The notes under the pieces: model-generated
The model's database searches: none
Seen by the model: the letters and a program-made list of their open reading frames with translations, nothing else
What the model was told of the DNA's origin: nothing
Position numbers and translations under genes: made by a program
DNA from: Bacteroidota bacterium
GTDB lineage: Bacteria; Bacteroidota; Bacteroidia; UKL13-3
Direction of reading: 5' to 3'
DNA length: 36,618 nt
Assembly: GCA_027487625.1 (NCBI GenBank)
Contig: JAIYDG010000029.1
Location: 1-36,618 of the forward strand
In this document: one piece after another, positions 2,864-25,339 of the stretch
How the letters are laid out: each line of letters opens with the position of its first letter
How positions within the stretch are numbered: the first letter of the stretch is position 1

Positions 2864-2903
2864 AGCTAGAATCAAAAACAAATAATAGTTTTATTTTAAT
2901 GAG

Positions 2904-2940
2904 AAAGGAGGCTGATTTAAAAAGTATGCCTCCTTTTTTA
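2904..2940 (+). terminator. Rho-independent terminator of YHYH operon
   Basis: AAAGGAGGC...GCCTCCTTTTTT hairpin with T-tract. Confidence 0.85.
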
Positions 2941-3080
2941 TTGCTTGTTTTGTAATCATGGGATGAAAATTCTTATTTTTCTAAGGATGAATCTGATCGG
3001 CAATTGAGAAATTAACAAGATTGTTTTAGGATTCCAATTCATCAAATCAATGTAATAATCATTGAAACAAAATGTCTCTG

Positions 3081-3443
3081 ATCCCTCGATTGTCCTGATG
3101 CTTCAGCTCATGGTAATGAGGGAAGAAAAAGATTATTCTATTAATTGAAAAGAAATGTCTCTGATCCCTCAATTGCCCCGTTGCTTCAGCTCGGGGTTAT
3201 GAGGGATGAAAAAGAATATTCTATATTTTAAAATCCAGAAACACAATCAATTTATATAGAAAAATATTCAATTTATATTTCTCAATTCCCAGGGATAAAT
3301 CCGCAGGGCAATTGAGAAATCAGCATAATTGTTTTAGGATTTATAATCCCATAATTCATTGTGATGAATAATGAAATGCTTCTCATCCCTCAATTGCCCT
3401 GATGCTTCAGCTCGGGGTAATGAGGGATGAAAAAGAATATTCT
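3081..3443. repeat. Three copies of an about 60-bp imperfect palindromic intergenic repeat (about 3081-3140, 3164-3222, 3385-3443)
   Basis: Shared core ATCCCTCAATTGCCCTGATGCTTCAGCTCGGGGTAATGAGGGATGAAAAAGAATATTCT; outer arms ATCCCTCA/TGAGGGAT, inner CTGA-TGCT-TCAG. Confidence 0.8.
3277..3320. repeat. Inverted repeat between palindromic repeat copies
   Basis: ATTTCTCAATT ... AATTGAGAAAT, perfect 11-bp arms; degraded relative near 2971-3020. Confidence 0.7.
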
Positions 3444-3659
3444 TTATTTTAATTGATACAGGTTAAACATTCAATCAATATTTCTCATTTTCCAAAAAAT
3501 GAAGCTATTCTTTTGGCGAGTAAACATCTGGATATTTTAAAATTTCAATAAAGATTTTATGATTAACAAAATTTATCCTAATAATATGCAACCTTATTGG
3601 GGCTTAATAATTACTTGTAGTTAATTCAAAATTTTATTAAACGTCTAAAATTCAAACCA

Positions 3660-4475
3660 ATGAAAAAAATTGTATGCATTTTAATAATTTCTATTGCAAT
3701 GATGGATGGCAATTCTAAGTCGCTGAAAGAAATTAAATCTATTGAAGAAAATTTGATGTTTAAACATTCTCAATTGGAGGCATTGACAATAAAAAGTAAA
3801 TTGAAATGTAAATATGATAAAATAGCAGAGTTTGGAGTTTATAAAGACGATTGGGCATTGGTTGAATTTAATGGACAATTTGGTTTCATCAATCATGAAG
3901 GGAAGGAAGTTGTTCCAACAAAGTTTGATAAAATAGCAGAGTTTGGAGTTTATAAAGCCGATTGGGCATTGGTTGAAGTTAATGGACAATTAGGTTTTAT
4001 TAATCATGAAGGAAAAGAAATTGTTCCAACAAAATATGATAAAATAGCCGAGTTTGGGGTTTATAAAGACGATTGGGCATTGGTTGAAATTAATGGTCAA
4101 TTAGGTTTCATTAATCATGAAGGGAAGGAAGTTGTTCCAACAAAGTTTGATAAAATAGCAGAGTTTGGGGTTTATAAAGCTGATTGGGCATTGGTTGAAG
4201 TTAATGGACAATTAGGTTTCATCAATCATGAAGGGAAAGAAATTGTTCCAACTAAATATGATAAAATAGCTGAGTTTGGGGTTTATAAAGACGATTGGGC
4301 ATTGGTTGAAGTTAATGGCCAATTAGGTTTCATCAATCATGAAGGGTTAGAAATTGTAAACACAATTTTTGATGAAATACATGCCTTTGGTGAAATTCAT
4401 TCTGACTGGGCTATGGTTATTAGTTCAGGAAAAAAAGGGTTTATTAATACTGATGGAAAAGTAGTTAAGGATTGA
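3660..4475 (+). CDS. WG-repeat-containing protein
   Basis: N-terminal signal-like segment; five near-identical 37-aa units KIAEFGVYKxDWALVExNGQxGFINHEGKExVPTKxD plus one divergent unit. Confidence 0.85.
   Translation: MKKIVCILIISIAMMDGNSKSLKEIKSIEENLMFKHSQLEALTIKSKLKCKYDKIAEFGVYKDDWALVEFNGQFGFINHEGKEVVPTKFDKIAEFGVYKADWALVEVNGQLGFINHEGKEIVPTKYDKIAEFGVYKDDWALVEINGQLGFINHEGKEVVPTKFDKIAEFGVYKADWALVEVNGQLGFINHEGKEIVPTKYDKIAEFGVYKDDWALVEVNGQLGFINHEGLEIVNTIFDEIHAFGEIHSDWAMVISSGKKGFINTDGKVVKD
3816..4370 (+). repeat. Tandem 111-bp coding repeat, 5 copies, organised as 222-bp higher-order units
   Basis: GATAAAATAGC phase starts at 3816, 3927, 4038, 4149, 4260 (exactly 111-bp spacing). Confidence 0.9.
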
Positions 4476-4514
4476 AGTGTAAATAGTAAGTGACTATGAA
4501 AAAACCTTAATTTA

Positions 4515-4672
4515 TACAAATGATATAATTTCAGTAATAATGCTAAAAATATAAACTTACTGATGAATTTAACCCTGATTTTATTATTACCGATATTACA
4601 AATGAATTTAATATTCAAGCCACAAAAACACCAAAATATTAACTCCTAAAGATTAAAGGGAAAATCATAAAC
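4515..4672 (+). pseudogene. Remnant of PIN-family toxin C-terminus
   Basis: DEFNPDFIITDITNEF... aligns with DECNADFIITGNTNDF of the intact toxin at 5105-5530; frameshift by a 1-bp deletion before the KNTKILTPKDYWENHKPNHY-equivalent nucleotides. Confidence 0.75.
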
Positions 4673-4691
4673 CCAATCATTATTAAACAAA

Positions 4692-4722
4692 AAAACTCAG
4701 CCATCACGACTGAGTTTTTTTG
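4692..4722. terminator. Terminator hairpin (duplicate copy)
   Basis: AAAAAAACTCAGCCATCACGACTGAGTTTTTTT. Confidence 0.75.
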
Positions 4723-4893
4723 TATTAATAATTGTTGATTAAAACCTATTTCAACCTATCGTAATTTCTTTGAATGAAATTGGTAAAATATTATTTAATA
4801 AAGTATCTTCACTTAAGTATAACCAAAAAGTAAAAAACACAACAAATTTTATACATTAATTTATTTTTATTATTTTTGATTAAATAAGTTAAA

Positions 4894-5124
4894 ATGAGAA
4901 CACTAAAGGTTTCAATATCAGATATAGAATTCAACAAATTTGGAATCAAAACGGAAGTTTTAAACTTTACCGAAATCATTGAACTTGTAAGTAAAGAATT
5001 AGCTCGTCAAAACTTAAACAAGAGTATAGAGTTGGCTGAAAAATTTGGATTTTCAAGCTTAACAATGGATGATATTACTAAGGAAGTAAAATTAGTGAGG
5101 AATCATTCAAAAAATCGTAATTGA
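4894..5124 (+). CDS. Putative antitoxin paired with PIN toxin
   Basis: Small 76-aa protein MRTLKVSISDIEFNKFGIKTEVL..., overlapping the start of the PIN reading frame. Confidence 0.7.
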   Translation: MRTLKVSISDIEFNKFGIKTEVLNFTEIIELVSKELARQNLNKSIELAEKFGFSSLTMDDITKEVKLVRNHSKNRN

Positions 5125-5530
5125 TACCAACGTTTTCGTTTCTGCACTCATTCAGCGTAACTACCCATACTATATATTAAATGATTTAGTTTTAGATAAC
5201 AAAATCACACTTTGTGTTTCTGAGGAATTATTAGCTGAATATTTTGAAGTATTAGCAAGACCTAAATTTTCTAAATTTCAAGATTTTTTTGCTCGAGCTG
5301 AATCTTTATTGGTATATATCGAAAACAAAGCAATGGTATTTCAACCAAAAATAAAGCTCAATATTATTTCAGACTTTGATGATAATAAAATTATAGAGCT
5401 AGCTGATGAATGTAATGCTGATTTTATTATAACAGGTAATACAAACGACTTTACATTTTCAAGCTATAAAAACACTAAAATATTAACTCCTAAAGATTAT
5501 TGGGAAAATCATAAACCCAATCATTATTAA
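5105..5530 (+). CDS. PIN-family toxin (PIN_3-like); no canonical start codon, ATT/ATC start assumed
   Basis: Open frame IQKIVIDTNVFVSALIQRNYPYYILNDLVLDNKITLCVSEELLAEYFEVLARPKFSKF...ADFIITGNTNDF...; PIN motifs IDTNVF and TGNTNDF. Track shows only 5309-5530. Confidence 0.8.
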   Translation: MQKIVIDTNVFVSALIQRNYPYYILNDLVLDNKITLCVSEELLAEYFEVLARPKFSKFQDFFARAESLLVYIENKAMVFQPKIKLNIISDFDDNKIIELADECNADFIITGNTNDFTFSSYKNTKILTPKDYWENHKPNHY

Positions 5531-5562
5531 ACAAAAAAACTCAGCCTTTACGACTGAGCTTT
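5530..5562. terminator. Bidirectional terminator between PIN toxin and htpG
   Basis: AAAAAAACTCAGCCTTTACGACTGAGCTTTTT. Confidence 0.75.
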
Positions 5563-5587
5563 TTATTTAATAATTGTTGATTAAAAC

Positions 5588-7396
5588 CTATTTCAACCTA
5601 TCGTAATTTCTTTGAATGAAATTGGTAAGCTCTTCGCCATGTAACAAGTTTTGAGATAGTTTAGCTAAATCGAATGCCTGTTGTAAAACCGGAGTTTTTT
5701 CAGCATCATCTAACTTAACCAGTTTTCTTGCCAAATCATGATTTGTATTTAAAACCACATTCCATGATTCAGGAAAAGCGCCAAACATCGACATTCCTTG
5801 CATTTTTTGCATATCAGCCATACGTCTCTCCCACTCTGGTTTAATTAGGGTTAAGAAATGATCGTCTGGAGCCAAAGCTTCTGTTTCGAACTTAAATTTA
5901 CCTGCTGCTCCAAATTGCTTTTCAAATGATTCTTTCAAGCTGCTTTGTTCTGCTTCACTTAATACACTTTCTGTTTTGATGTCTTTATCAATCAACTTAT
6001 CGATACTCTCACTATCAACACGCTTCCACGTTGTGTTTTCCAATTTGTGTTCGATGTTTGATATAAAATGGTTATCCAAAGGACCATCCATCAAAATAAC
6101 ATCATATCCCCTCTTTTCGGCTGTTTGACAGAAACTATCATGTGCTTTTAAATCGTTTGTGTATAGATAAACTATTTTGTTGTCTTTATCTGTTTGAGTA
6201 GCACTAACCTTTTCTTTGTACTCTTCTAAAGTAAATAATTCTTTGGCTTTGTTTTGTAATAAACAGAATTTGCTTGCTCTATCATAGAACTTCTCATCGG
6301 TAATCATGCCGTATTTAACAAATAAACCAATGCTTTCCCACTTGTTATTGAATTCAGTTCTATCTGCTTTAAAGATTTCTTCTAGTTTATCAGCAACTTT
6401 TTTAGTGATATGTGAATTGATTTTTTTCACGTTTGAATCACTTTGTAAATAACTGCGACTTACATTCAAAGGAATATCTGGAGAATCGATAACACCTTGT
6501 AATAACATCAAGAATTCAGGCACAATTTCTTGAACACTATCGGTAACAAAAACTTGGTTGCTGTATAATTGAATTTTGTTCTTTTGAGGTTCGAAATCGT
6601 TTTTTATTTTAGGGAAATATAGAATACCTGTTAGTTTAAAAGGATAATCTACATTCAAATGAATCCAGAATAAAGGAGTTTCGCTGAATGGATACAATTC
6701 TTTGTAGAAGTTTTCATAATCTTCCTTCGTACATTCAGATGGAGCTTTTGTCCATAATGGAGCAGGATTATTAATTACCTTTTCTTCGTATTCGATTTCA
6801 ACAGGAAGGAATTTGCAATACTTTTCAAGAATACCTTTGATTCTGAAACTATCATTAAATTCCAAAGAATCTTCTGCAAAATGCAAAATTACTTCAGTAC
6901 CTCTTTCCGTTTTATCAGAAGCAGAAATTTCATAAGAGGTGCTACCATCACAAGACCATTTAACTGCAGGAGCATCTTCTTTGTATGATTTAGTAATAAT
7001 TTCAACCTGATGAGCAACCATAAAAGCCGAATAAAAACCTAAGCCAAAATGTCCAATTACTTGTGCCCCTTTGTCTTTGTATTTATCTAAAAATTCCTCT
7101 GCAGAGCTAAAAGCTAACTGATTGATATATTTACCAACCTCTTCCTCTGTCATACCAATACCACTATCGATGATATGAAGGGTTTTAGCTTCAGTATCTA
7201 ATTTTACAAGAATTTTTAAATCACCTAATTCACCTTTAGCTTCTCCGCTAGATGATAAGGTTTTTAATTTTTGAGTAGCATCTACAGCATTGGAAACCAA
7301 CTCCCTTAAGAAAATCTCGTGGTCGCTGTAAAGGAATTTTTTGATAATAGGAAAAATGTTCTCTGTGTGTACACTGATATTACCTTTTGTTGTCAT
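5588..7396 (-). CDS. htpG: Molecular chaperone HtpG (Hsp90)
   Basis: NIFPIIKKFLYSDHEIFLRELVSNAVDATQKL, IIDSGIGMTEEEV, GHFGLGFYSAFMVA. Confidence 0.97.
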   Translation of the reverse strand: MTTKGNISVHTENIFPIIKKFLYSDHEIFLRELVSNAVDATQKLKTLSSSGEAKGELGDLKILVKLDTEAKTLHIIDSGIGMTEEEVGKYINQLAFSSAEEFLDKYKDKGAQVIGHFGLGFYSAFMVAHQVEIITKSYKEDAPAVKWSCDGSTSYEISASDKTERGTEVILHFAEDSLEFNDSFRIKGILEKYCKFLPVEIEYEEKVINNPAPLWTKAPSECTKEDYENFYKELYPFSETPLFWIHLNVDYPFKLTGILYFPKIKNDFEPQKNKIQLYSNQVFVTDSVQEIVPEFLMLLQGVIDSPDIPLNVSRSYLQSDSNVKKINSHITKKVADKLEEIFKADRTEFNNKWESIGLFVKYGMITDEKFYDRASKFCLLQNKAKELFTLEEYKEKVSATQTDKDNKIVYLYTNDLKAHDSFCQTAEKRGYDVILMDGPLDNHFISNIEHKLENTTWKRVDSESIDKLIDKDIKTESVLSEAEQSSLKESFEKQFGAAGKFKFETEALAPDDHFLTLIKPEWERRMADMQKMQGMSMFGAFPESWNVVLNTNHDLARKLVKLDDAEKTPVLQQAFDLAKLSQNLLHGEELTNFIQRNYDRLK

Positions 7397-8325: not shown

Positions 8326-11300
8326 TTATTTGCTTACATTGAATCTGATATGCGTTGGCTTAACATCATCGTCTGTAATCACTACTAAGTAATTTCCTAC
8401 ACTTAAATCGCCACAAATAATGTCGATTTTGTTTTCGTATAAATTCATTTGGATTTGAACAGGAACTTTTCGTCCCAATAAATCCATTACTTCTACTTTG
8501 GTTTTTCTATTTAAAAACTTACATGCAATACTAAATTCACCAGCATTCGGATTAGGATACAGTATATATGAGTTTTCAACCTGAATAGCTCTTTCACTTA
8601 CTCCTGTGCTAGTTTTAGAATCAGCTTTAATCTGGTCAAAATCTAAAACATCTTTATGAGGGAAATTGACTCTAATTGGACGAGCATAACCAAAACATGT
8701 TCCACCAATAACTTGAACTATCATGGTTGTTGTATCATAACAATTTTCTGAACCTACTGCTACCAATGATACTGTATAAGTTCCAGCACTTGCATAATGT
8801 TTATTAAAGATAAAAGCATGCGTTGAATCAACAGTTCCATCACCAAAATTCCAATAGTACTTAGGAATCCATCCAGTACCTAAATACTGTGATGTATTGG
8901 TAAAGTTGAAACTATTTCCAACCAAACATTGAACAGGATTTTCAGTATTAAATGAAGCACTTGGTCCTTTTGCAGTTGAAGGCACATAAACCTGCGCTGT
9001 TGATACACTTGAACAACCAAATGGGTCAATTGCGGTTAAACTCACTGTGAAGTAACCTGTATCGGCATAACCTTTGTTCGGGCTGTTTTGGTTCGATACA
9101 TTTCCATCACCAAAGTTCCATAAATATGTATTAGAACTTCCTGAGCTTGTATTGAAGAATTGAACTTTGTTTGAACAAACACAATTACAAATAGTATTTC
9201 TGAAATAGAATGATGAGTTTACAGAACCTGGACTAGCATTAATTGTTACTGTATCTTTAATCGTAACACTACATCCTGAATTATTAGCCATGGTTAAACT
9301 CACTATATAATCGCCATTTGCACTAAAGTTATGAGAAGCCATAGGGCCACTTGATGTATTAGAACCTGAACCCAAATCACCAAAATTCCAAGAATAAGAT
9401 TCAGCATTTAATGCATCTGCAGTGAAAACAACATTTCTATTACAAGTATTGGTATCAGCAAGCATTCTACCTACAGGAATATCTTGTATTTGAATAAATC
9501 TACTAAAGGTATCTCTGCATGCACCATTAATAGAAACCATAGTTAATGTATGTCCACCAATTGAAGGATTACTAATATTAAAATTCGGACCCCAATTCAT
9601 TAAAACACCATCCCAGAACCAATTAGTTGCTGCTCCATTGGTTGAAATATCAACTGCTTGAACAATATTAGCACAAGTTGAAAGTGTAAAGCTAAATTGA
9701 GCAGATGGAACAGGATTTCCTAGTCCTGGAGGAGCTACAACTGTAAATGTATCAGCATCAAAACAAGAACCTCCATTTGAACCAATCACAATTACCGTAT
9801 AAGTACCACCAACTGCATAAGCATGGGCAGGACTAAATGCATTTGAAACAGGAGAACCATCACCAAAATACCAAGTAAAATGACCAGCATTAACTGATGT
9901 ATTATGGAATTGAATTGCATTCGAACATGGAATAGTATCATAAGTAACACGAATTTGAGGCTTAGTTCCTAATGCAGCCATTAAACCTACATTTTGCTCA
10001 GCACGACAACCATTGTTTCCGGTTCCACTTAAATTAATAAACTTCCAACCTTGAGTTAAATAGGTATGGTACAAAGTATCATTGTTATTTTCCTCATAAA
10101 ATCCATCACCAAAATCCCAGAAATGAGAAAGTGCTCCAGTTGAATTATTCACGATTTCAACCCTCATTCCACAAGCTGCATCTGCAGAAAAATTCAATAC
10201 AGGAGAAGGAAGAACTTTAATAGTTTGATAAGTTGTATCTCTACATCCATTGCTACCAAATCCAACCAATCTAACATGATAAGTTCCAGGAGCAGTATAT
10301 TGCTTGTTGAATGCAAAAGTATTAACCAAATCTTGTGTACCATCACCAAAATCCCAATGGTAGTTCATTGTCCAGCCATTACCTAAGAAGGTAGAGTAAT
10401 TCAAGAAATTAAAGCTATTTCTAAATAAACATTGTTCGTCATCTTCTGGTGTGAATTGAACAACAGGTCCACCTGAATTTGCTAAAACAATCACATTTTG
10501 AGTTAATGTATCATAACAATTTGTGGTAGAACGAGCAATTAATGTAACAGGATAAACACCTGCAATTGGGAATGATTTATTTACATCTCTTAAACCAATT
10601 ACAGAGCTATCATTAAATATCCAACGGTAACAATCATCTAAAGGTGAAGTATTGGTTGATGTATTTGTGAATGCAAATCTGGTAACACAATTTCCAGGTA
10701 ATGGAGCATATGTGAAATTAGCTGTTGGAGCAATTCCTACTGATGACACATTTACCACTCTAGTAAAGGTATCAGTACAATTTTCATCAGTAATTGCAAT
10801 CATTGTTACGGTATAAGTGCCGTTTGATGGATATGTGAATCTTGGATTATTCGCACTTGAAGTATCAGTAGTTACAGAAGGAACTCCAAAATCCCAGATT
10901 AAACTATCAGCATTATCAGTATAATTATTAAACTGTATTACAGTTGTACATCCTAAAGAATCAACTCCAAATACTGCTTTTAATTTAGGACTAACATGGA
11001 TTGGCATGGTAATAGTATCAGCACATAAACCATTATTTCTAGCTATCAAAGTAACATTATAATCACCAGGTCCATATTGATGTGTTATATCAGCAGTTGA
11101 ATTTGTGCAATAAAATCCATTTCCAAATTGCCATTCAAAATCGTTTCCATAATTAGATAAATTATGAAAAGTAACAGTACCATCACAATTTCTAGTATAT
11201 GAGAAATTTGCAATTGGTGGGCCCGCATACACTGATTTTGTAATAGAATCCTTACATCCATAAAAGTTGGTAGCAATTAATTTCACATTATATGCACCTT

Positions 11301-14300
11301 GACTTGTATATGTTTTTACAGGATTGGTATCAGTGCTATAAGTTAAATCTCCGAAATCCCAAGCATAAGAAACAGAAGCACCAGGACTTGAAGATGTGTT
11401 AGTGAAATCAAAATCATGAGAACCGAAACATTGGTTATCATTATTAACAGTAAAATTAGCAACAGGAGGATTGTTAACTATTGCAACTGTTAATGTATTC
11501 GAAGCATTTGATGAACAAGCACCTGAATCAGTTGAAATGATTTTATATGTACCCGCTGCATTGGCAGTATAATTTGAAGAAACCTCTCCTGGAATTAATA
11601 CATTGTCTTTGTACCATTGGTAAGTAAAGTTTACCCCAGTTGTGCTCGATAATGTAGTTTGTCCACCTGTACAAATGCTCGTATTACCTGAGATTACAGG
11701 AGTTGTAACATCACATTTATAACCAGCATCAATTGTAGGATTATGTCTGTTTACACCAGAATTATTTACCAAATTCATTGTAAATACTGGACTTAAACCA
11801 GTAGTTACTGAAGCATCACTATTTCCGTTTACACCAGGAGAAGTATTTCTAGTTGTAAGAACTTTGGTTTGATAATTTAAAGGAAACTGAACTTGATAAT
11901 CAGCACTTTCATCAATGATGAAATTATAATAACCTGGATTTCCTGAACCATCATTTGCAGTTATTGTAGAATCAATTAATACCATTCCTGAACCCATGTT
12001 TCTATATAAATAAACTTTTAATCCATTTATACCATTTGAAGCAGATTCATTTTGCAAACCATTTTTATTGTTATCAACCCAAAGGTAATTACCAATTGAT
12101 CCTAAAGGGTAATAACCAGCATCGATAGTTGTATTGTCTTTATCTTGTCCAGTGCCAGCTGCGTTAATTGTAACAATTGAACTTAAGCCACCAGTTAAAG
12201 AAGCATCGTTATTGCCATCATTTTGATCTGTTTGAATAGCAACAGGACTTAATAAATATTCATTATAAGCAGTTGGAAACTTCACATAATATTTACCTGA
12301 CGCTAATTCAATAAATTTATAGTAACCAGGATTTCCAAAAAAGTCATTTGCTGAAACAGTTGAATCCATTAATACATCATCACCGCCACCAATAGCATTA
12401 TCAGCACCAGCTCCATATAAATAAATCTTCATTCCATTTAAACCCAAAGAAGAAGCTTCATCTTGTAAACCATTTTTATTGGCATCAATCCAAACATAAT
12501 TTCCTAAAGAACCTAAAACAGGTGTACAAGTTGTTCTCATTCCTACCATAATTGGTGTTGTTGGTAACAATTGTGAACTGTTGTCAGCACGAGAAGCTTG
12601 GTACATGATTGAATTGTTCATCAATAAGTTAATTGGAGTTCCAACAGGAGCGCGCATCAACCATTTTAATTCAATCGAATCTAAAGCAGGTAAGACAGCA
12701 GATCTTGTAATTTTTATACCTTTAACAGATGTAATATCCATAGGTGGAGTTGTAGTCCAAGAAGGAGTTGAGCAACCACCTGGATTCGTTGCAGGATTAA
12801 AATCATTTAAACAAGGATTAGTAGTTGTAGTATAATATACTGTTGAACTTGGATCACTTATACTTACAGGACTAACTAAATTAGCAAACCACTGTGAACT
12901 TCTGAAATCACCAATAAAAGGAAACACATCAACCATTACTAAATCTTTAGCAGCAACGTTTCCTAAGTTTTTAATCGTAATTTTATAGTTTACAGGACCA
13001 GCCTCTTGAGCTATCGCATTCGCAGGATAATAAACATATGAAGGATCACAACCATTTTGTCCTTTATAAGCTCTTAATGCAACTGCTGAAATTACTGTTA
13101 CATCAACATCATCAGTAACACCATTAAACAAACCATTTGAACTATTCAAATAAGCTCTATTATGAATACCTGTTGGTGGTGTTCCAGGTTCAATTACAGT
13201 TTGAAATCTGATTGCGTAAGTTTTACCAGTTGTTAAAGTACCAAGTGACCAATTTAAAATTGAATCATTTGTAATCGTTGGGGTAATTGAACTAGGTACA
13301 TTATCTATATATAAAACAGAAGAACCCGGTACATAATTTAATCTTGAATCAAGCGTATCTGTAATTACTACTGAAGTAGCATTAACATTTCCTCCCAAAT
13401 AAGTACTAAATTGATAAGTTATTGTATCACTTGCACGGTAGTTTCCATCAGAATTAATGATTGATTTTCCTGTGAAACCAAATACAGGTTGAGGAATCAT
13501 AATTTCAGCAGAACCATTACAATTTGAATAAGCATTTGAGGTTCCACCGAAGTAATAAAATCCTTCAGAATTATTTGTAACCACAGTACCATCATCACCA
13601 ATATTTGAAGGATTATAAGTAGTACCTTCAACAATTGGGCTGCCATCTTTAGCACCTAAAGCAGATGTTCTTGAATCACCGCAGTAACTAAAATCTTGAC
13701 TTCCACCAATAGGTAAGTTTCCTCTAACAATAAATTTCACTTTGGTAACATATTCAGTTGGAGGTAAACTGATATTGATATTTTGAGTTGACCCACTTAA
13801 TGCAGCAACAGTAACAGAACTATATGTACCTTGGTAAACATAAGGATTGCTGTTTGTTTGGTAATAAACTTCAATACTAGCTGGAGCAACCGAATCAAAA
13901 CCATCATAAACAGGACGTACTTTTATTTCATTGAAATTGATACTTTTATCTACATTATAAATAAGAGTTACTGAATCTAATTCTGTATTTCCTGAATTAT
14001 ACCAACCATTACTAAACCAATTACAAGAAGTACCTGCAAGAATATGTCTGTTCATCCAATAAGCAGTAGCAGCAGTAATACCGCCACCCCAACAAGCAGC
14101 TCCAGGAGTTGGAGTTTCAACATTAAAACAAACATTTCCTGATTTATTACTTGCTGAATAAGTTCCTAAAGGAAGTATCGGAATTTCACCAAATAAATAA
14201 GCTGTATTACAAACCAAATTTCCGATTGAAAAAGTTGGTGAAGTATAACGAACACTTACATAAGCTGAAGAAGAAAATGAAGTAGCAAAAGCAGATGACC

Positions 14301-15063
14301 AAGTCCATGTAATAGTTCTGTTACCAGCATTATAAACTGGAGCACTTGAACCACTAAATCCTGTAGCTTCAACAAAATCAACACCTAATGGCAATGTATC
14401 AACTAAAATAGGGTTATTTAAATTCAATGCTGCTGATGAAGAACTTGATGAAGAAATTCCAATTTGATAAATTGTAATATCATCGATTGCACCACCTGCT
14501 GTTTTATTTTTGTTGATGGTAAATTGGTTATTGGAAATCGCTGTTACATTCAAAATATTTGATGAAACCGGTCCAGTTCCACCACCAATATTTAGATTGT
14601 TATCAGCATCAATAATAGCTACTAAATCTGGTGCGTAGGAATTTGGAGTTACTCCATTTAAGTACTTAAACTTAATTTGCAATTGACCAGTACTACCTGC
14701 AGGAATTGGGTTTACAAAAACTATATCAATTTCGTTGGTACCCGAATTATAAGTAACCGATGAAACTTGACTTTCATCAAACTCAACTGAATTTGCAAAT
14801 GGACTGATTACAAATGGAACCAAATTAGCGGGTAAATCAATATTTGCCCTAACATTGATACCATTAGTTGTTAAACTTGAAACTTGGTAGTTTAAAGTGT
14901 AAATAAACTGATTTCCAGTATTTACAGAAGATAAATTTGAGCTACCCGATAAACTTAATTCAACTGTTGCATTTGCATTTAATCCTAATATACTTAGGAA
15001 AATAACAGCAAATAACTTCATAGAGCAAATGGCTCTATGCTTCATGAAAGTAAAAATTTTCAT
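8326..15063 (-). CDS. Giant multidomain secreted protein: DUF11-like, two SdrD_B-like domains, Ig-like domain, multiple PKD domains, C-terminal T9SS type A sorting domain
   Basis: DSRLNYVPGSSVLYIDN; GSLGNYVWIDANKNGLQDE and GSIGNYLWVDNNKNGLQNE; repeated W(D/N)FGDG..Y..G.Y.V.L; C-term YILYPNPNAGEFSIACKF...DLLGRKV. Start may be an internal Met (MKHRAICSMKLF). Confidence 0.92.
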   Translation of the reverse strand: MKIFTFMKHRAICSMKLFAVIFLSILGLNANATVELSLSGSSNLSSVNTGNQFIYTLNYQVSSLTTNGINVRANIDLPANLVPFVISPFANSVEFDESQVSSVTYNSGTNEIDIVFVNPIPAGSTGQLQIKFKYLNGVTPNSYAPDLVAIIDADNNLNIGGGTGPVSSNILNVTAISNNQFTINKNKTAGGAIDDITIYQIGISSSSSSSAALNLNNPILVDTLPLGVDFVEATGFSGSSAPVYNAGNRTITWTWSSAFATSFSSSAYVSVRYTSPTFSIGNLVCNTAYLFGEIPILPLGTYSASNKSGNVCFNVETPTPGAACWGGGITAATAYWMNRHILAGTSCNWFSNGWYNSGNTELDSVTLIYNVDKSINFNEIKVRPVYDGFDSVAPASIEVYYQTNSNPYVYQGTYSSVTVAALSGSTQNINISLPPTEYVTKVKFIVRGNLPIGGSQDFSYCGDSRTSALGAKDGSPIVEGTTYNPSNIGDDGTVVTNNSEGFYYFGGTSNAYSNCNGSAEIMIPQPVFGFTGKSIINSDGNYRASDTITYQFSTYLGGNVNATSVVITDTLDSRLNYVPGSSVLYIDNVPSSITPTITNDSILNWSLGTLTTGKTYAIRFQTVIEPGTPPTGIHNRAYLNSSNGLFNGVTDDVDVTVISAVALRAYKGQNGCDPSYVYYPANAIAQEAGPVNYKITIKNLGNVAAKDLVMVDVFPFIGDFRSSQWFANLVSPVSISDPSSTVYYTTTTNPCLNDFNPATNPGGCSTPSWTTTPPMDITSVKGIKITRSAVLPALDSIELKWLMRAPVGTPINLLMNNSIMYQASRADNSSQLLPTTPIMVGMRTTCTPVLGSLGNYVWIDANKNGLQDEASSLGLNGMKIYLYGAGADNAIGGGDDVLMDSTVSANDFFGNPGYYKFIELASGKYYVKFPTAYNEYLLSPVAIQTDQNDGNNDASLTGGLSSIVTINAAGTGQDKDNTTIDAGYYPLGSIGNYLWVDNNKNGLQNESASNGINGLKVYLYRNMGSGMVLIDSTITANDGSGNPGYYNFIIDESADYQVQFPLNYQTKVLTTRNTSPGVNGNSDASVTTGLSPVFTMNLVNNSGVNRHNPTIDAGYKCDVTTPVISGNTSICTGGQTTLSSTTGVNFTYQWYKDNVLIPGEVSSNYTANAAGTYKIISTDSGACSSNASNTLTVAIVNNPPVANFTVNNDNQCFGSHDFDFTNTSSSPGASVSYAWDFGDLTYSTDTNPVKTYTSQGAYNVKLIATNFYGCKDSITKSVYAGPPIANFSYTRNCDGTVTFHNLSNYGNDFEWQFGNGFYCTNSTADITHQYGPGDYNVTLIARNNGLCADTITMPIHVSPKLKAVFGVDSLGCTTVIQFNNYTDNADSLIWDFGVPSVTTDTSSANNPRFTYPSNGTYTVTMIAITDENCTDTFTRVVNVSSVGIAPTANFTYAPLPGNCVTRFAFTNTSTNTSPLDDCYRWIFNDSSVIGLRDVNKSFPIAGVYPVTLIARSTTNCYDTLTQNVIVLANSGGPVVQFTPEDDEQCLFRNSFNFLNYSTFLGNGWTMNYHWDFGDGTQDLVNTFAFNKQYTAPGTYHVRLVGFGSNGCRDTTYQTIKVLPSPVLNFSADAACGMRVEIVNNSTGALSHFWDFGDGFYEENNNDTLYHTYLTQGWKFINLSGTGNNGCRAEQNVGLMAALGTKPQIRVTYDTIPCSNAIQFHNTSVNAGHFTWYFGDGSPVSNAFSPAHAYAVGGTYTVIVIGSNGGSCFDADTFTVVAPPGLGNPVPSAQFSFTLSTCANIVQAVDISTNGAATNWFWDGVLMNWGPNFNISNPSIGGHTLTMVSINGACRDTFSRFIQIQDIPVGRMLADTNTCNRNVVFTADALNAESYSWNFGDLGSGSNTSSGPMASHNFSANGDYIVSLTMANNSGCSVTIKDTVTINASPGSVNSSFYFRNTICNCVCSNKVQFFNTSSGSSNTYLWNFGDGNVSNQNSPNKGYADTGYFTVSLTAIDPFGCSSVSTAQVYVPSTAKGPSASFNTENPVQCLVGNSFNFTNTSQYLGTGWIPKYYWNFGDGTVDSTHAFIFNKHYASAGTYTVSLVAVGSENCYDTTTMIVQVIGGTCFGYARPIRVNFPHKDVLDFDQIKADSKTSTGVSERAIQVENSYILYPNPNAGEFSIACKFLNRKTKVEVMDLLGRKVPVQIQMNLYENKIDIICGDLSVGNYLVVITDDDVKPTHIRFNVSK

Positions 15064-17707: not shown

Positions 17708-18007
17708 TTAGATTATTTCCCTTCGTTTTAAATCTCTCGAACTGTGATGAATTGTCAATATGTCAATTTTATCTTTATCAATAATCTTATAAATGATTCG
17801 ATAATTCCCTTCAACTAATTCTCTTACAGCCAAATTTCCCTTTTCAATAACTTCTTTACCAATTAGTGGTTTTGTTTTTAAAATCTTTGTCCTTGTTTTA
17901 ATTTTAATTACTTCAAGTTGTGCGTATTTCTTGGATCCTTTTGATATAAAGTCGTAAATACTTTTTAAGTCATCGACTGCAATCTTAGTCCAATTTATTT
18001 GAACCAT
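17708..18007 (-). CDS. Type II toxin, RelE/ParE superfamily
   Basis: INWTKIAVDDLKSIYDFIS...GNLAVRELVEGNYRIIYKIIDKDKIDILTIHHSSRDL. Confidence 0.88.
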   Translation of the reverse strand: MVQINWTKIAVDDLKSIYDFISKGSKKYAQLEVIKIKTRTKILKTKPLIGKEVIEKGNLAVRELVEGNYRIIYKIIDKDKIDILTIHHSSRDLKRREII

Positions 18008-18964: not shown

Positions 18965-21859
18965 ATGAGAATTCTGGCTTTTCTTTTCCTTATTGCTTGC
19001 AGTTTAGTATCGCAAGCCCAAAAACTTCATGAATTGGTTAATCCATTTATTGGCACTGGCGGTCATGGACATACTTTCCCTGGAGCTACTGCGCCATTTG
19101 GAATGGTTCAATTAAGTCCAGATACCAGACTAGAAGGTTGGGATGGTTGTAGCGGTTACCATTATAGTGATTCTGTTATTTATGGATTTTCACATACGCA
19201 TTTAAGTGGCACTGGTTGCAGCGATTATGGAGACGTAATGTTAATGCCAGTGATGGGCGATTTTAAAGATAAAAATGAGGTGTTTAAACCATCTGTTTAT
19301 TCTTCAAAATTCAAACATGAAACAGAAAAAGCTCATGCTGGATTTTATGGTGTTAAACTAGAAGATGATCAAATTCTTTGCAGAATGACAGCTTCAGATA
19401 GAACAGGTTTTCATGAATACCAATTCTTGAATAAAGGCAAAGCTTATTTGGTTTTAGATTTATTACATCGTGATGAATTGCTTGAATCTAAAATAAATAT
19501 CATCAACAAAAGAACAATCGAAGGATTTAGAAGAAGTAAGGCTTGGGCAACCGACCAATGGGTTTATTTCAGAATAGAATTTTCGAAAGATTGTTTTGAA
19601 AAACTAGAATATTCAGGCAAAAAAGGCTTTAAACAAACTGGCATTGCTTTCGGATTTAAAATGAAGAAAAACGAAAAGCTTTATGTAAAAGTAAGTTTAA
19701 GTGCAGTTAATGAAGTAGGTGCAGCAAAAAATATGAGTAAGGAAATTTCACATTGGAACTTCAATCAAACACTTACCGAAACAGAAAATAAATGGGACAA
19801 AGAATTGGGCTTGATAAAAATTGAAGGCAATTCAAAAGACAAACAAATCATTTTTTATACAGCCTTATATCATTCTTTTATTCAACCAAATATTGCTTCT
19901 GATGTAGATGGCAAATACAGAGGCAGAGATAATTTAATTCATGAAGCAAAAGGATTTGATTACTATTCGGTTTTCTCTTTATGGGATACTTTCAGAGCAG
20001 CACATCCTTTGTACAATTTGGTTCAAAGAAAAAGAAGCAATGATTTTATCCAAACTTTCATTCGTCAGTATAAAGAAGGTGGCCGCTTACCCGTTTGGGA
20101 ACTATGGAGCAATGAAACAGATTGTATGATTGGATACCATAGTGTTTCAGTAATAGCTGATGCATGGGCAAAAGGAATCAGAAATTTTAACAAAAAAGAT
20201 GCTATTGAGGCGATGTTACATAGTGCCAACAGAGATGAACTTGGTTTAAAATCATACAAAAAAAATGGTTTTATTTCTATTGAAGATGATGCTGAATCAG
20301 TTTCAAAAACATTGGAATATGCTTATGACGACTGGTGCATTTCAACATTTTTAGAAGGTGAACAAAAGGAAGTTTTTGAAAAAAGAGCTCAATCATGGAA
20401 AAATATATTTGATCCTAAAAGTGGTTTTATGCGTCCACGTTCGAATGGAGGTTTTCTTGAACCTTTTGAGCCAAGAGAAGTAAACAATCATTTTACAGAA
20501 GCTAATTCATGGCAATATTCATTTTTCGTTCCTCATGATATTAATGGTTTAATGCAAGCTTATGGTGGAGTGAAAAATTTCGAGAAAAAACTAGATGTTT
20601 TATTTAGCGAAAACAGCAAAACTACTGGACGAGAACAAGCTGATATTACAGGATTAATTGGACAATATGCGCATGGAAATGAACCTAGTCACCATATGGC
20701 TTGGTTATATAATTTTACTGGAAATACCAATAAAACTCAGGCAATGATTAGAAGAATTCTTGAGTCGCAATACCAAAATGCGCCTGATGGATTAGCAGGA
20801 AATGAAGATTGTGGTCAGATGAGTGCATGGTTTGTTATGAGCTCTATGGGCATTTATAGTGTTTGTCCAGGTACTACATCTTATGAAACGGCAGCACCTT
20901 ATTTTGATAAAATTGTTGTAAAAACTGGAGATTCAAAGAGTTTTAGCATTCTGGCAAATAATGCTGCTGAAAACCCTTTTGTTGCTTATAGAAGTATCAA
21001 TGGGAACACCAATCCTGGCTTTAAACTTGAACATCAACAATTGATGGAAAACCAAATTATATCTTATAAATTGTCAAAAAGTGAATTAAGTTTCCCTATT
21101 AAAGAGAATAAATTACCTGAACTGAAGGGCCTCTTCCCCGCTCCACTTATTAAAGCTAAAAAACAAGCATTTAAAGATAGCATGTTGGTCAGTTTAGAAT
21201 CACTAGAATCACCAAGTTTATTGTATTATTCAATAAATGGCTCCGATAAATTAATTCAATACAAAGCTCCATTTTATATTTATAAAACTACAGATATCAA
21301 ATGTTTGGCAACCGATTTATCAGGTAATAGAAGAAATGAGAGTTTTGCTCATTTTCATTTGATACCTCACAATTGGAGTATTATGTTAAAGTCAAAGATT
21401 ACCAAGCCCTATACTGGAGGTGGTGATGATGCTTTGATTGATGGAATTAGAGGCGATGAAAACTGGAGAAAAGGTTTGTGGCAAGGCTATTGGGGACAAG
21501 ATTTTGAAGCCATCATTGATTTACAAAAAATGAAAAAGGTTAAAACAGTAAAAGCCTCATTTTTACAAGACAGTAAATCATGGATTTTATTTCCAAAAAA
21601 TATGGAAGTAAGTTATTCCATTGATGGTGAAACGTATTTTCCTTTTGGTACAGCTGACTATGATGTAAAACCAGAAAATGAAACAGTAAGTTTATTGACA
21701 TTAAGAACCTATCAACAAAAAGGAATTGAAGCACTGTTTATCAAAGTGAAAGCCAAACATTACGGAAAGCTCCCTGAAAATCATTTGGGTGCAGGATATC
21801 CAGCTTATATTTTTATTGATGAAATTGATGTTTTGGAGGATATTGAAGTAGCCAAGTAA
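18965..21859 (+). CDS. GH92 family glycosyl hydrolase (alpha-mannosidase-like) with C-terminal chitobiase-like/F5-8C-like region
   Basis: VNPFIGTGGHGHTFPGATAPFGMVQLSPDTR..GYHYSDSVIYGFSHTHLSGTGCSDYGDV; EPSHHMAWLYNF, DGLAGNEDCGQMSAWFV. Track TTG start at 18893 replaced by ATG before signal peptide. Confidence 0.93.
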   Translation: MRILAFLFLIACSLVSQAQKLHELVNPFIGTGGHGHTFPGATAPFGMVQLSPDTRLEGWDGCSGYHYSDSVIYGFSHTHLSGTGCSDYGDVMLMPVMGDFKDKNEVFKPSVYSSKFKHETEKAHAGFYGVKLEDDQILCRMTASDRTGFHEYQFLNKGKAYLVLDLLHRDELLESKINIINKRTIEGFRRSKAWATDQWVYFRIEFSKDCFEKLEYSGKKGFKQTGIAFGFKMKKNEKLYVKVSLSAVNEVGAAKNMSKEISHWNFNQTLTETENKWDKELGLIKIEGNSKDKQIIFYTALYHSFIQPNIASDVDGKYRGRDNLIHEAKGFDYYSVFSLWDTFRAAHPLYNLVQRKRSNDFIQTFIRQYKEGGRLPVWELWSNETDCMIGYHSVSVIADAWAKGIRNFNKKDAIEAMLHSANRDELGLKSYKKNGFISIEDDAESVSKTLEYAYDDWCISTFLEGEQKEVFEKRAQSWKNIFDPKSGFMRPRSNGGFLEPFEPREVNNHFTEANSWQYSFFVPHDINGLMQAYGGVKNFEKKLDVLFSENSKTTGREQADITGLIGQYAHGNEPSHHMAWLYNFTGNTNKTQAMIRRILESQYQNAPDGLAGNEDCGQMSAWFVMSSMGIYSVCPGTTSYETAAPYFDKIVVKTGDSKSFSILANNAAENPFVAYRSINGNTNPGFKLEHQQLMENQIISYKLSKSELSFPIKENKLPELKGLFPAPLIKAKKQAFKDSMLVSLESLESPSLLYYSINGSDKLIQYKAPFYIYKTTDIKCLATDLSGNRRNESFAHFHLIPHNWSIMLKSKITKPYTGGGDDALIDGIRGDENWRKGLWQGYWGQDFEAIIDLQKMKKVKTVKASFLQDSKSWILFPKNMEVSYSIDGETYFPFGTADYDVKPENETVSLLTLRTYQQKGIEALFIKVKAKHYGKLPENHLGAGYPAYIFIDEIDVLEDIEVAK

Positions 21860-21878
21860 TTTTAGAAAATGGCATGAT

Positions 21879-21912
21879 AAAGGTTCCGCTGAAATATTCT
21901 TCGGAACCTTTT
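21879..21912. terminator. Bidirectional terminator
   Basis: AAAGGTTCCG...CGGAACCTTTT. Confidence 0.75.
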
Positions 21913-22555
21913 ATTTCCTTCCAATAATCAAATCGTTGCTTTGTTGCAGGTTCTTTAAAACGTGGGTTTTGATTTGATTTTTATTCAGATTTGATAACAT
22001 ATCTTGAAATAAATCCCGTGGCATACTTTGATGAATTGTATTATAAATTAAATGGGCGTTTGGATTCATTAAATCAGCTAAATTTGATAAAAAAGTTTCT
22101 TGGGTAAAAACCTCAGGAATTTTGTCACCTATAAAAATATCAACGATGATTAAATCGAATGTGTTTTTTGCATTTCTTACATACCAAAAGGCATCCTCCT
22201 CTATGATTGTGAGATTTGAAAACTCATTCAATTTGAAATAATCATTAGCAATCTGAATCATTTCTGCATCAATTTCAATAGCAGTGATGTGTGCTGATGA
22301 ACTATAATCTTTCCTGATTGTATGAATAATTGAGCCGGCGCCCAATCCTAACAGTAAAATGTTTTTCTCGTTTGAAAACTTAATTTCTTCCAATCCACGG
22401 AGTAAAATCTTTTGTAATGAACCAAAAGAATAATTACTATCTGCTGAATCTAACTGAGCTTTTCCATTCACCAGATTGATTTCAAGTAGACCATTTAACT
22501 TAGTTCTGAACTCTTTTAATCGCACAGGAAATATATAACTCAAGCCGGTTTTCAT
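21911..22555 (-). CDS. Spermidine synthase-like SAM-dependent methyltransferase fold protein
   Basis: NILLLGLGAGSIIHTIRKDYSSSAHITAIEIDAEMIQIANDYF; FDLIIVDIFIGDKIPEVF. Confidence 0.75.
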   Translation of the reverse strand: MKTGLSYIFPVRLKEFRTKLNGLLEINLVNGKAQLDSADSNYSFGSLQKILLRGLEEIKFSNEKNILLLGLGAGSIIHTIRKDYSSSAHITAIEIDAEMIQIANDYFKLNEFSNLTIIEEDAFWYVRNAKNTFDLIIVDIFIGDKIPEVFTQETFLSNLADLMNPNAHLIYNTIHQSMPRDLFQDMLSNLNKNQIKTHVLKNLQQSNDLIIGRK

Positions 22556-22576
22556 GGGGCTAAAGGTAAGTTAATC

Positions 22577-23486
<910 letters not shown>

Positions 23487-23577
23487 TTTACTTTATATTT
23501 TCGAAAAGAATAAAGTAAAAGCTGCTACTTCAATAAGAAGCCGATAGATAAAAGATACCTATACAACAAACTAATGC

Positions 23578-23698
23578 TTTACACTTTTCGTGAGTGTATT
23601 TTTTGCATAACAATCAGCTAAGTATCTGGCTTATAAGCTAAGCTTATTTACAGTTGCACGACAGCCCACGATTTTCACATGGTTCCTTCTATCTGATT
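23578..23698 (-). ncRNA. Cobalamin riboswitch-like element (aptamer 23612-23698, kissing hairpin about 23578-23605)
   Basis: Minus strand AATCAG-ATAGAAGGAACCATGTGAAAATCGTGGGCTGTCGTGCAACTGTAAATAAGCTTAGCTTATAAGCCAGATACTTAG-CTGATT: B12 core GGAA..GUGAAAAUC..GCUGUCGUGCAACUGUAA, B12-box-like AAGCCAGATACTTAGC, closing stem AATCAG/CTGATT, P6-like ATAAGC-TTA-GCTTAT, L5 TCGTG complementary to CACGA in the downstream ACACT..AGTGT hairpin loop. Confidence 0.85.
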
Positions 23699-23706
23699 AT
23701 TTAAAA

Positions 23707-23735
23707 CAAAAGTATTCTATTTTTTGAAATTCCAA
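23707..23735 (-). promoter_or_regulatory. Bacteroidota-type promoter driving riboswitch operon
   Basis: Minus strand TTG-N18-TACTTTTG (TTG at 23733-23735, TACTTTTG at 23707-23714), just upstream of aptamer. Confidence 0.65.
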
Positions 23736-23737
23736 TA

Positions 23738-24559
23738 TCAAGCTAATGCAATTTTACGAAGAATATCACTTACACCATGTTCAGCATTGCTTAATTGGGT
23801 TTGATAATTTGCGGCTTCAACTATAAGTGGATGTGCATTTTTCATGGCAAAACTAAGCTCAGCTTCCTTCATCAACTCCAAATCGTTTAGATAATCACCA
23901 AAAACCATTGTTTCATATTTTTGGATGCCCATGATATGTTGAACTTTATTCAAAGCCTTTCCTTTATTGGCTCCTTTTATGCTAATGTCAAGCCAAATGA
24001 TTCCTGATACTACCACATTTAAATCAATCATATCATCTTTAAAATGAGGAAATGAATTGGTATTGGGATTAGTAAAATCACAGATGGTTACTTTTAATAC
24101 ATCATCCTGAATTAAAGTTAGATCATCTACTATTTCAACTTTGGCATAATACTTATTTACCTCATGAACAAAAACCTCTGCCCTACTTTCAATATATGCA
24201 GCATTTTTAGCACAAACAATGGTATAAGCATTTTCTAATTTTCTTGCCTTTTGAATAAGAGGAATACACCTTTGCATTGGAATAGTTTCCAAATGAATTA
24301 ATTCATCTTTCTGAGAAACATAAGTTCCATTTTCAGCAATGAATAACATTCTATGAGCAATAGGAGCAAACAGATTTTTCATGTTGTAAAACTGTCGGCC
24401 ACTTGCAACAGCAAATACAATTCCTTTATCGTAAAGTCTTTGTTCTATTTCGAAAAAATCTGAAGACAATTCTTTGTTTTCATTCAATAATGTGCCATCA
24501 AGGTCACTAACAATCAGTTTTACTTTTGAAAAATCAGGTGTTTCTAACATTGTGCGCAA
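23738..24559 (-). CDS. Cof-type HAD-IIB family hydrolase
   Basis: LIVSDLDGTLLNENKELS; GANKGKALNKVQHIMGI; MVFGDYLNDLELMKEAELSFAMKNAH. Confidence 0.92.
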   Translation of the reverse strand: MRTMLETPDFSKVKLIVSDLDGTLLNENKELSSDFFEIEQRLYDKGIVFAVASGRQFYNMKNLFAPIAHRMLFIAENGTYVSQKDELIHLETIPMQRCIPLIQKARKLENAYTIVCAKNAAYIESRAEVFVHEVNKYYAKVEIVDDLTLIQDDVLKVTICDFTNPNTNSFPHFKDDMIDLNVVVSGIIWLDISIKGANKGKALNKVQHIMGIQKYETMVFGDYLNDLELMKEAELSFAMKNAHPLIVEAANYQTQLSNAEHGVSDILRKIALA

Positions 24560-25222: not shown

Positions 25223-25256
25223 ACAAAAATGATTATAGAAAACAAAATATGATGCC

Positions 25257-25311
25257 CCCTCCAGCTCTCAACAACTCGGACCAAAGGTCCGAGTTGTTGA
25301 GAGCTGGAGGG
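25257..25311. repeat. Perfect 26-bp-arm inverted repeat, 3-nt loop
   Basis: CCCTCCAGCTCTCAACAACTCGGACC-AAA-GGTCCGAGTTGTTGAGAGCTGGAGGG. Confidence 0.97.
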
Positions 25312-25339
25312 ATTTTGTATAATTCATTTTTCTATAAAC

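What the first reader, a model, noticed from the sequence alone, without database searches (positions are those of the whole stretch)
23578..23698. Compact cobalamin riboswitch with a sequence-visible L5-L13 kissing loop
Minus strand shows GGAACCATGTGAAAATCGTGGGCTGTCGTGCAACTGTAA, a hairpin ATAAGC-TTA-GCTTAT, then AAGCCAGATACTTAGC, all enclosed by AATCAG/CTGATT (23693-23698 with 23612-23617). About 15 nt downstream a hairpin ACACT..AGTGT exposes CACGA (23588-23592), the exact complement of TCGTG in the L5 position (23657-23661). This matches the loop-loop pseudoknot of cobalamin riboswitches. The short peripheral region suggests a compact class rather than the long btuB type.
Basis: partly seen in the sequence, partly recalled or inferred. 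Interest (0 to 1): 0.75.

Follow-up and report, generated by a model that had tools for sequence, protein, structure and literature searches.

The report
Compact B12 riboswitch over likely transporter
The sequence is a real but unusually short vitamin B12-sensing RNA switch in a Bacteroidota genome, and it sits directly in front of an uncharacterised membrane protein (DUF6580) that is probably a vitamin B12 importer, so it both enlarges a known switch family and suggests a function for an unknown protein family.

Summary
The element (minus strand, about 23713-23570) scores 49.9 bits against Rfam RF01482 (cut-off 50, E 2e-8) and 33.0 against RF00174 (cut-off 31.5). Homologues keep the core. The kissing loop covaries: 27 of 28 relatives keep at least 4 contiguous L5-L13 pairs, with TCGTG/CACGA, TCGCG/CGCGA, TTGCG/CGCA, TAGCG/CGCT and ACGGG/CCCG. 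It lacks the class I extension and the class IIb UCU motif, so it fits neither class cleanly; several close relatives fall below every Rfam cut-off. A Bacteroidota promoter lies just upstream. The likely mechanism is translational OFF: the L13/P13 3' strand can instead pair with the 5' arm of a hairpin that buries the DUF6580 start codon; the kissing loop would release that arm. Thirteen of 56 related DUF6580 genes carry this compact switch, and several operons continue into cobT-cobS-cobC. The DUF6580 model has the S-component fold; its best PDB match is the B12 transporter BtuM, but without BtuM's essential cysteine. The host genome uses B12, lacks CobT, CobU and EcfT, and has a BtuB-like operon under a second switch. 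Ligand binding, regulation and transport are untested.

The parts
23707..23735 (-). Bacteroidota-type promoter, TTG-N18-TACTTTTG (TAnnTTTG -7 motif), just upstream of the aptamer
   Evidence: Sequence; TAnnTTTG lies within 140 nt upstream of 23 of 37 homologous riboswitches against 3.5 expected in shuffles
23609..23701 (-). P1-enclosed aptamer core (P1 23701-23693 with 23617-23609; GGAA J3/4; P4; P5/L5; P6; GCCAGAUAC)
   Evidence: RF01482 49.9 bits, RF00174 33.0 bits; P4 covariation in 28 homologues; fold
23657..23661 (-). L5, TCGTG, kissing-loop strand 1
   Evidence: Covaries with L13 in 28 homologues; permutation p below 1e-4
23580..23598 (-). P13 hairpin TACACT-CACGAAA-AGTGTA, with L13 CACGA at 23588-23592
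   Evidence: Sequence, fold, covariation
23575..23590 (-). Proposed anti-sequestor strand 1: the 3' part of L13 and the 3' strand of P13 (CGAAAAGTGTAAAGC)
   Evidence: Duplex with 23501-23524 of -15.5 kcal/mol, z -2.67; cognate better than swapped partners
23501..23524 (-). Proposed anti-sequestor strand 2 (CAGCTTTTACTTTATTCTTTTCGA), overlapping the 5' arm of the start-codon hairpin
23486..23520 (-). Start-codon hairpin, perfect 11-bp stem TTTTACTTTAT/ATAAAGTAAAA; the 3' arm ends on the A of the DUF6580 ATG (23486-23484)
   Evidence: Fold; -11.4 kcal/mol for the stretch, z -2.26
22920..23486 (-). DUF6580 membrane protein, 188 aa, the gene the riboswitch precedes; predicted ECF S-component fold, BtuM-like
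   Evidence: PF20221 E 3.8e-43; AlphaFold2 pLDDT 93.3; Foldseek top match BtuM 8ovv, TM 0.65/0.69
22577..22927 (-). Cys-rich CWC plus DUF5522 protein, 116 aa, overlaps the end of DUF6580; conserved second gene of the operon
   Evidence: PF14375, PF17653; same order in orthologous operons
21911..22555 (-). Spermidine-synthase-like methyltransferase, third gene on the same strand; membership of the regulon uncertain
   Evidence: PF01564 E 5.4e-14; not seen in the orthologous operons examined

Best explanation
A compact cobalamin (most likely adenosylcobalamin) riboswitch that represses translation of a DUF6580 B12-uptake gene when the vitamin is plentiful. Without ligand, the 3' part of L13 and the 3' strand of P13 pair with a segment 15-38 nt before the DUF6580 start, keeping it off the start codon, so the gene is translated. 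With ligand, L5-L13 kissing stabilises P13; the freed segment pairs with the sequence up to the A of the AUG and hides the start codon. DUF6580 of this subtype is proposed to be a solitary S-component-fold importer of cobalamin (or a close corrinoid) across the inner membrane. Shown here by sequence and covariation: the aptamer, the kissing loop, the promoter position and the B12 gene context. Inferred: the alternative pairing as a switch, the OFF sign, the ligand form and the transport function. The confidence given is for the riboswitch identity plus control of a B12-uptake gene; for start-codon occlusion as the mechanism about 0.65, for transport by DUF6580 about 0.55.
For: Aptamer. P4 99% paired in 28 relatives, permutation p 0 of 5000. 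Kissing loop: 27 of 28 with at least 4 pairs against 15.2 under permutation, p below 1e-4. Expression platform: in all 13 DUF6580 leaders tested the L13/P13 3' strand can pair upstream of the start codon (-10.6 to -19.0 kcal/mol; z -0.4 to -4.5, window -2.67); cognate sum -153.3 against -113.3 for swapped partners, 0 of 20000 permutations. No terminator-like site on the minus strand of 21700-23900. Gene link: 13 of 56 subtype DUF6580 genes carry the compact switch upstream and 2 more an extended class I type; 15 of 56 have cobT, cobS, cobC, cobU or btuF-like genes within 5 kb, whereas none of the 28 other DUF6580 loci of the same family does (flanks 1.5 kb only), and 27 of those form a separate clade, support 100/100. 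Structure. Host: B12-binding domains present; CobT, CobU and EcfT not found; BtuB-like operon under a second cobalamin riboswitch.
Against: No binding or expression data. The leader as a whole folds no better than shuffles (z -0.82), and start-codon hairpin z-scores in several orthologues are near zero. The cognate-versus-swapped test is partly confounded by shared ancestry. The RF01482 score is 0.1 bit below cut-off. The fold match is not substrate-specific: the non-B12 DUF6580 paralogue also matches BtuM (TM 0.65) among other S components, both matches have Foldseek E above 0.001, and BtuM's essential loop-3 cysteine is absent (against PMC6072759). One FecCD-type ABC permease exists in the genome and could be BtuC, although it lies beside a FUR-family regulator.
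Confidence: 0.8

Rival explanations
1. The riboswitch is genuine but acts by transcription attenuation: the kissing loop favours a terminator in the leader or early operon.
For: The P. megaterium metE switch uses P13 3'-strand pairing to control a terminator (PMC10653944).
Against: No intrinsic terminator-like site on the minus strand between 21700 and 23900; the downstream hairpin reaches the start codon in the window.
Confidence: 0.1
2. The DUF6580 protein moves a B12 precursor or part (cobinamide, lower-ligand base or alpha-ribazole) rather than complete cobalamin, feeding the CobT-CobS-CobC steps next door in relatives.
For: Co-operonic cobT, cobS and cobC in UKL13-3 and relatives.
Against: The window's own genome (98% complete) has neither CobT nor CobU yet keeps the riboswitch-DUF6580 pair; Ignavibacteria/Kapabacteria loci pair it with a secreted protein and no cob genes within the held flanks.
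Confidence: 0.25
3. It senses methyl- or hydroxocobalamin rather than adenosylcobalamin.
For: Compact switches include class IIa, which prefers MeCbl/HyCbl (stated in PMC11260477); some relatives score best against RF01689.
Against: The window scores best against RF01482 and has the GGAA J3/4 motif reported for class IIb (PMC11260477); this is indirect.
Confidence: 0.25
4. The element is a decayed riboswitch without function.
For: RF01482 score just under cut-off; sparse presence, 4 of 66 genomes of the order with a model match, one of them upstream of a ribonucleotide reductase gene rather than DUF6580.
Against: Core, kissing loop, promoter and start-codon distance are all kept, and the elements covary in distant relatives.
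Confidence: 0.04

Closest known systems
Rfam RF01482 AdoCbl riboswitch (cobalamin clan CL00101)
   Same: Full-length match, short P6 without peripheral extension, GGAA J3/4, L5-L13 kissing loop
   Different: 49.9 bits against a cut-off of 50; L5 is TCGTG and not the UCCCG consensus cited in PMC10653944; J6/3 side lacks the UCU motif (AAGCCAGAUAC)
Class I cobalamin riboswitch (RF00174; E. coli btuB type)
   Same: Core and B12-box-like GCCAGAUAC; 33.0 bits, above cut-off
   Different: No P8-P12 extension; the same genome has a long one at G000:C191 (97 bits) for comparison
M. tuberculosis ppe2 switch, proposed variant of class IIb (PMC11260477)
   Same: No P8-P12 extension, GGAA in J3/4, no UCU in J6/3; acts as a translational OFF switch there, proposed here
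   Different: Different phylum and gene; its reported uORF coupling was not looked for here; ligand preference of ours unknown
P. megaterium metE corrinoid riboswitch expression platform (PMC10653944)
   Same: The 3' strand of P13 pairs with the 5' arm of the regulatory hairpin in the unbound state
   Different: There the hairpin is a terminator; here it covers a start codon
BtuM, solitary cobalamin transporter with S-component fold (PMC6072759; PDB 8ovv, 8c7p)
   Same: Six helices, top Foldseek match, no EcfT found in the genome, B12-linked neighbourhood
   Different: No detectable sequence relation, and the invariant loop-3 cysteine is absent from DUF6580 (loop 71-84, [14 protein letters not shown])

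Membership tests
Cobalamin riboswitch (clan CL00101) | Covariance-model score at or above a family cut-off | tested here: met
   RF00174 33.0 bits against 31.5; RF01482 49.9 against 50, just missed; nothing listed in the fast gathering scan
Cobalamin riboswitch (clan CL00101) | L5-L13 kissing loop, conserved by covariation | tested here: met
   27 of 28 homologues, permutation p below 1e-4
Cobalamin riboswitch (clan CL00101) | Controls B12-related genes | tested here: met
   Relatives precede DUF6580-cobT-cobS-cobC operons, ribonucleotide reductase, metE-like and TonB-receptor genes
Cobalamin riboswitch (clan CL00101) | Binds a cobalamin and changes structure | not testable with these tools
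   Needs probing or calorimetry
Class I cobalamin riboswitch | P8-P12 peripheral extension after P6 | tested here: not met
   Only a 6-bp P6 hairpin lies between ACTGTAA and AAGCCAGATAC (compare extended relatives)
Class IIb cobalamin riboswitch | GGAA in J3/4 and no extension | tested here: met
   GGAACC 23686-23681; criterion from PMC11260477
Class IIb cobalamin riboswitch | UCU motif in J6/3 | tested here: not met
   J6/3 side reads AAGCCAGAUACUUAGC; criterion from PMC11260477
Class IIa cobalamin riboswitch (RF01689) | Best score to RF01689 and MeCbl/HyCbl preference | tested here: inconclusive
   RF01482 outscored the other clan members in the window; ligand preference not testable
BtuM family (DUF6580 protein) | S-component fold with six transmembrane helices | tested here: met
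   pLDDT 93.3, six helices; BtuM top match, TM 0.65/0.69, Foldseek E 0.025; control paralogue also S-component-like
BtuM family (DUF6580 protein) | Invariant cobalt-liganding cysteine in loop 3 | tested here: not met
   Loop 71-84 has no cysteine in the window protein, and no cysteine is invariant or nearly so in 45 homologues
BtuM family (DUF6580 protein) | Sequence similarity to BtuM | tested here: not met
   Profile search of PDB sequences, no match at E up to 10
BtuM family (DUF6580 protein) | Host lacks an ECF module | tested here: met
   No PF02361 (EcfT) found in the genome, which is 98% complete

The most novel reading that the evidence does not exclude
The riboswitch-linked DUF6580 subtype is a new family of solitary vitamin B12 importers of Bacteroidota and relatives (Ignavibacteria, Kapabacteria), with the BtuM/S-component fold but without BtuM's cobalt-binding cysteine. 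It is controlled by a compact cobalamin riboswitch group that is neither class I nor typical IIb and that switches by burying the start codon itself in a phylum that rarely uses Shine-Dalgarno pairing.
Probability: 0.5. Interest if true: 0.7.

Novelty: new variant of a known kind. Interest (0 to 1): 0.5.

Why it matters
Many B12-dependent bacteria without BtuCDF have no identified route for B12 across the inner membrane (introduction of PMC6072759). A B12-sensing RNA placed repeatedly in front of one DUF6580 subtype, together with cobT-cobS-cobC neighbours and a BtuM-like predicted fold, gives a specific and easily tested candidate in Bacteroidota. The RNA adds a compact group that Rfam partly misses (several close relatives below all cut-offs) and offers a clear test of how a riboswitch controls translation in a phylum where, from general knowledge, Shine-Dalgarno pairing is little used.

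Tried and rejected
Whole-window Rfam scan at gathering thresholds listed nothing, so sensitive scans and an own model (R1) were used. A papers search for 'Cbl-II' with 'kissing loop' and one for DUF6580 found nothing. The idea that all DUF6580 genes belong to the B12 regulon was rejected: 64 of 66 genomes of the order have a DUF6580 gene, but only the subtype with the FTWFYEG motif has the switch, and the other copies form a separate clade. The idea that the fold match alone proves B12 transport was rejected after the control paralogue matched BtuM equally well. Transcription attenuation is disfavoured by the lack of a terminator-like site. A viral fold library gave nothing. R1 hits in class Bacteroidia include extended class I switches upstream of metE-like, TonB-receptor and other genes; these were separated by the presence of the extension.

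Full report
Observation. P1 can be extended to 9 bp (23701-23693 with 23617-23609). The fold of the leader shows P1, P4, P6 and P13 as described, plus an 11-bp hairpin at the start codon.

Identity. A sensitive Rfam scan gives a full-length RF01482 (AdoCbl riboswitch) match of 49.9 bits, E 2e-8, 0.1 bit under the curated cut-off. A whole-genome search with RF00174 gives 33.0 bits, over its 31.5 cut-off, and finds a second, long class I riboswitch (97 bits) at G000:C191. A gathering-level scan of the window missed the element.

Relatives. Two orthologous leaders were found upstream of DUF6580 in the same order and used with the window for a model, R1. R1 found 4 of 66 genomes of the order, 36 of 392 of the class and 16 of 398 of the phylum sample. 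The matches are a mixture of compact switches and extended class I switches. Genes directly downstream are DUF6580, a hot-dog (4HBT) thioesterase, CWC/DUF5522 proteins, class I ribonucleotide reductase beta subunit, metE and TonB receptors; the ribonucleotide reductase and metE genes were named by eye from their translations, not by a profile search. A search of genomes of 85,462 species for the DUF6580 subtype returned 56 loci; 13 have the compact switch directly upstream and 2 an extended one, in Bacteroidota and in MAGs labelled Ignavibacteria, Kapaibacterium and Chlorobiota.

Covariation. P4 is 99% paired in 28 compact sequences with several pair types. L5 and L13 change together: TCGTG/CACGA, TCGCG/CGCGA, TTGCG/CGCA, TAGCG/CGCT, ACGGG/CCCG. 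27 of 28 have at least 4 contiguous pairs against 15.2 with shuffled partners, p below 1e-4. One of the 28 in the kissing-loop test (L135) was an extended type kept in the set.

Class. The element has no P8-P12 extension, so it is not class I; it has GGAA at J3/4 but no UCU at J6/3, so it does not meet both class IIb criteria as stated in PMC11260477. The M. tuberculosis ppe2 switch was described with the same combination. Among DUF6580-linked relatives, several reach no Rfam cut-off (L035, L036, L039, L043, L044).

Expression platform. A Bacteroidota promoter (TTG-N18-TACTTTTG) ends about 6 nt before P1, and such motifs are enriched in relatives, 23 of 37 against 3.5 expected. In the window, CGAAAAGTGTAAAGC (3' part of L13 plus P13 3' strand) can pair with CAGCTTTTACTTTATTCTTTTCGA (23524-23501), -15.5 kcal/mol, z -2.67. 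The same segment supplies the 5' arm (23520-23510) of the hairpin that reaches the A of the start codon. All 13 DUF6580 leaders tested can form the equivalent pairing at a similar place; cognate partners are better than swapped ones (-153.3 against -113.3 in total, 0 of 20000 permutations), a test partly confounded by relatedness. No terminator-like site lies on this strand. Hence translational OFF control by start-codon occlusion is the preferred model. It is inference and not shown.

Controlled gene. The first gene is DUF6580 (PF20221), the second a CWC/DUF5522 protein, the third a SpeE-like methyltransferase. In Bacteroidetes bacterium UKL13-3 (CP012155.1) and two relatives the operon runs DUF6580, DUF5522, thioesterase, secreted T9SS protein, CobT, CobS, CobC. 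15 of 56 subtype loci have cobT, cobS, cobC, cobU or btuF-like genes within 5 kb, and none of 28 loci with the other DUF6580 type has any (shorter flanks for the latter). The other type is nearly universal in the order and forms its own clade.

Protein fold. The AlphaFold2 model is confident (pLDDT 93.3, pTM 0.87). Its best PDB matches are BtuM bound to hydroxy- and cyanocobalamin (TM 0.65 normalised by the query, 0.69 and 0.68 by the target), then ECF S components, with Foldseek E-values of 0.025-0.06 for the best three. As a control, the non-riboswitched paralogue also gives S components including BtuM. The fold therefore says 'S-component', and the riboswitch and gene neighbours say 'B12'. 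BtuM's invariant cysteine is not conserved and no sequence similarity was detected.

Host context. The genome has several B12-binding domains, some in long frames of the size of MetH and mutases (the enzymes were not identified individually), no CobT, no CobU, no EcfT, a BtuB-like receptor operon under the second riboswitch, and a single FecCD permease beside a FUR-family regulator. It is probably a B12 scavenger for which DUF6580 could supply the inner-membrane step; BtuCD function of the FecCD system cannot be excluded.

Verdict. The riboswitch is a variant of a known kind. What is most worth testing is the prediction that riboswitch-linked DUF6580 is a B12 importer.

Noticed in passing
G000:C191 (locus L151, about 1351-6562): A second, long class I cobalamin riboswitch precedes a BtuB-like receptor, a DUF4465 T9SS protein, a secreted protein resembling gene 4 of the DUF6580 operons, and a DUF5074 protein with weak beta-propeller matches.
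   Followed up: partly
L067/L087, L068/L090, L094, L071/L096, L118, L073/L123, about 30-52 nt upstream of the aptamer GGAA: A boxA-like GTTCTTTGA(C) motif follows the promoter in six DUF6580-linked leaders (expected 0.1 by shuffling), but not in the window; possibly an antitermination element.
   Followed up: partly
L074 (G112:C36), about 2053-2160 +: A well-conserved relative of the riboswitch with no same-strand gene directly behind it; the next genes are on the other strand. Rearrangement or assembly join.
   Followed up: no
L002 (G039:C7) and L045, L048-L050, L052, L059: Compact cobalamin riboswitches upstream of a class I ribonucleotide reductase beta-subunit gene; in several of them a hot-dog thioesterase gene follows.
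   Followed up: partly
window 17708-18007 (-): ParE-family toxin gene (PF05016); a possible antitoxin frame lies beside it.
   Followed up: no
window 25250-25315: Long inverted repeat around CAACTCGGACC/GGTCCGAGTTG between genes, a terminator-like or mobile-element-like hairpin.
   Followed up: no
window 8326-15063 (-): A 2245-aa open reading frame, not examined.
   Followed up: no
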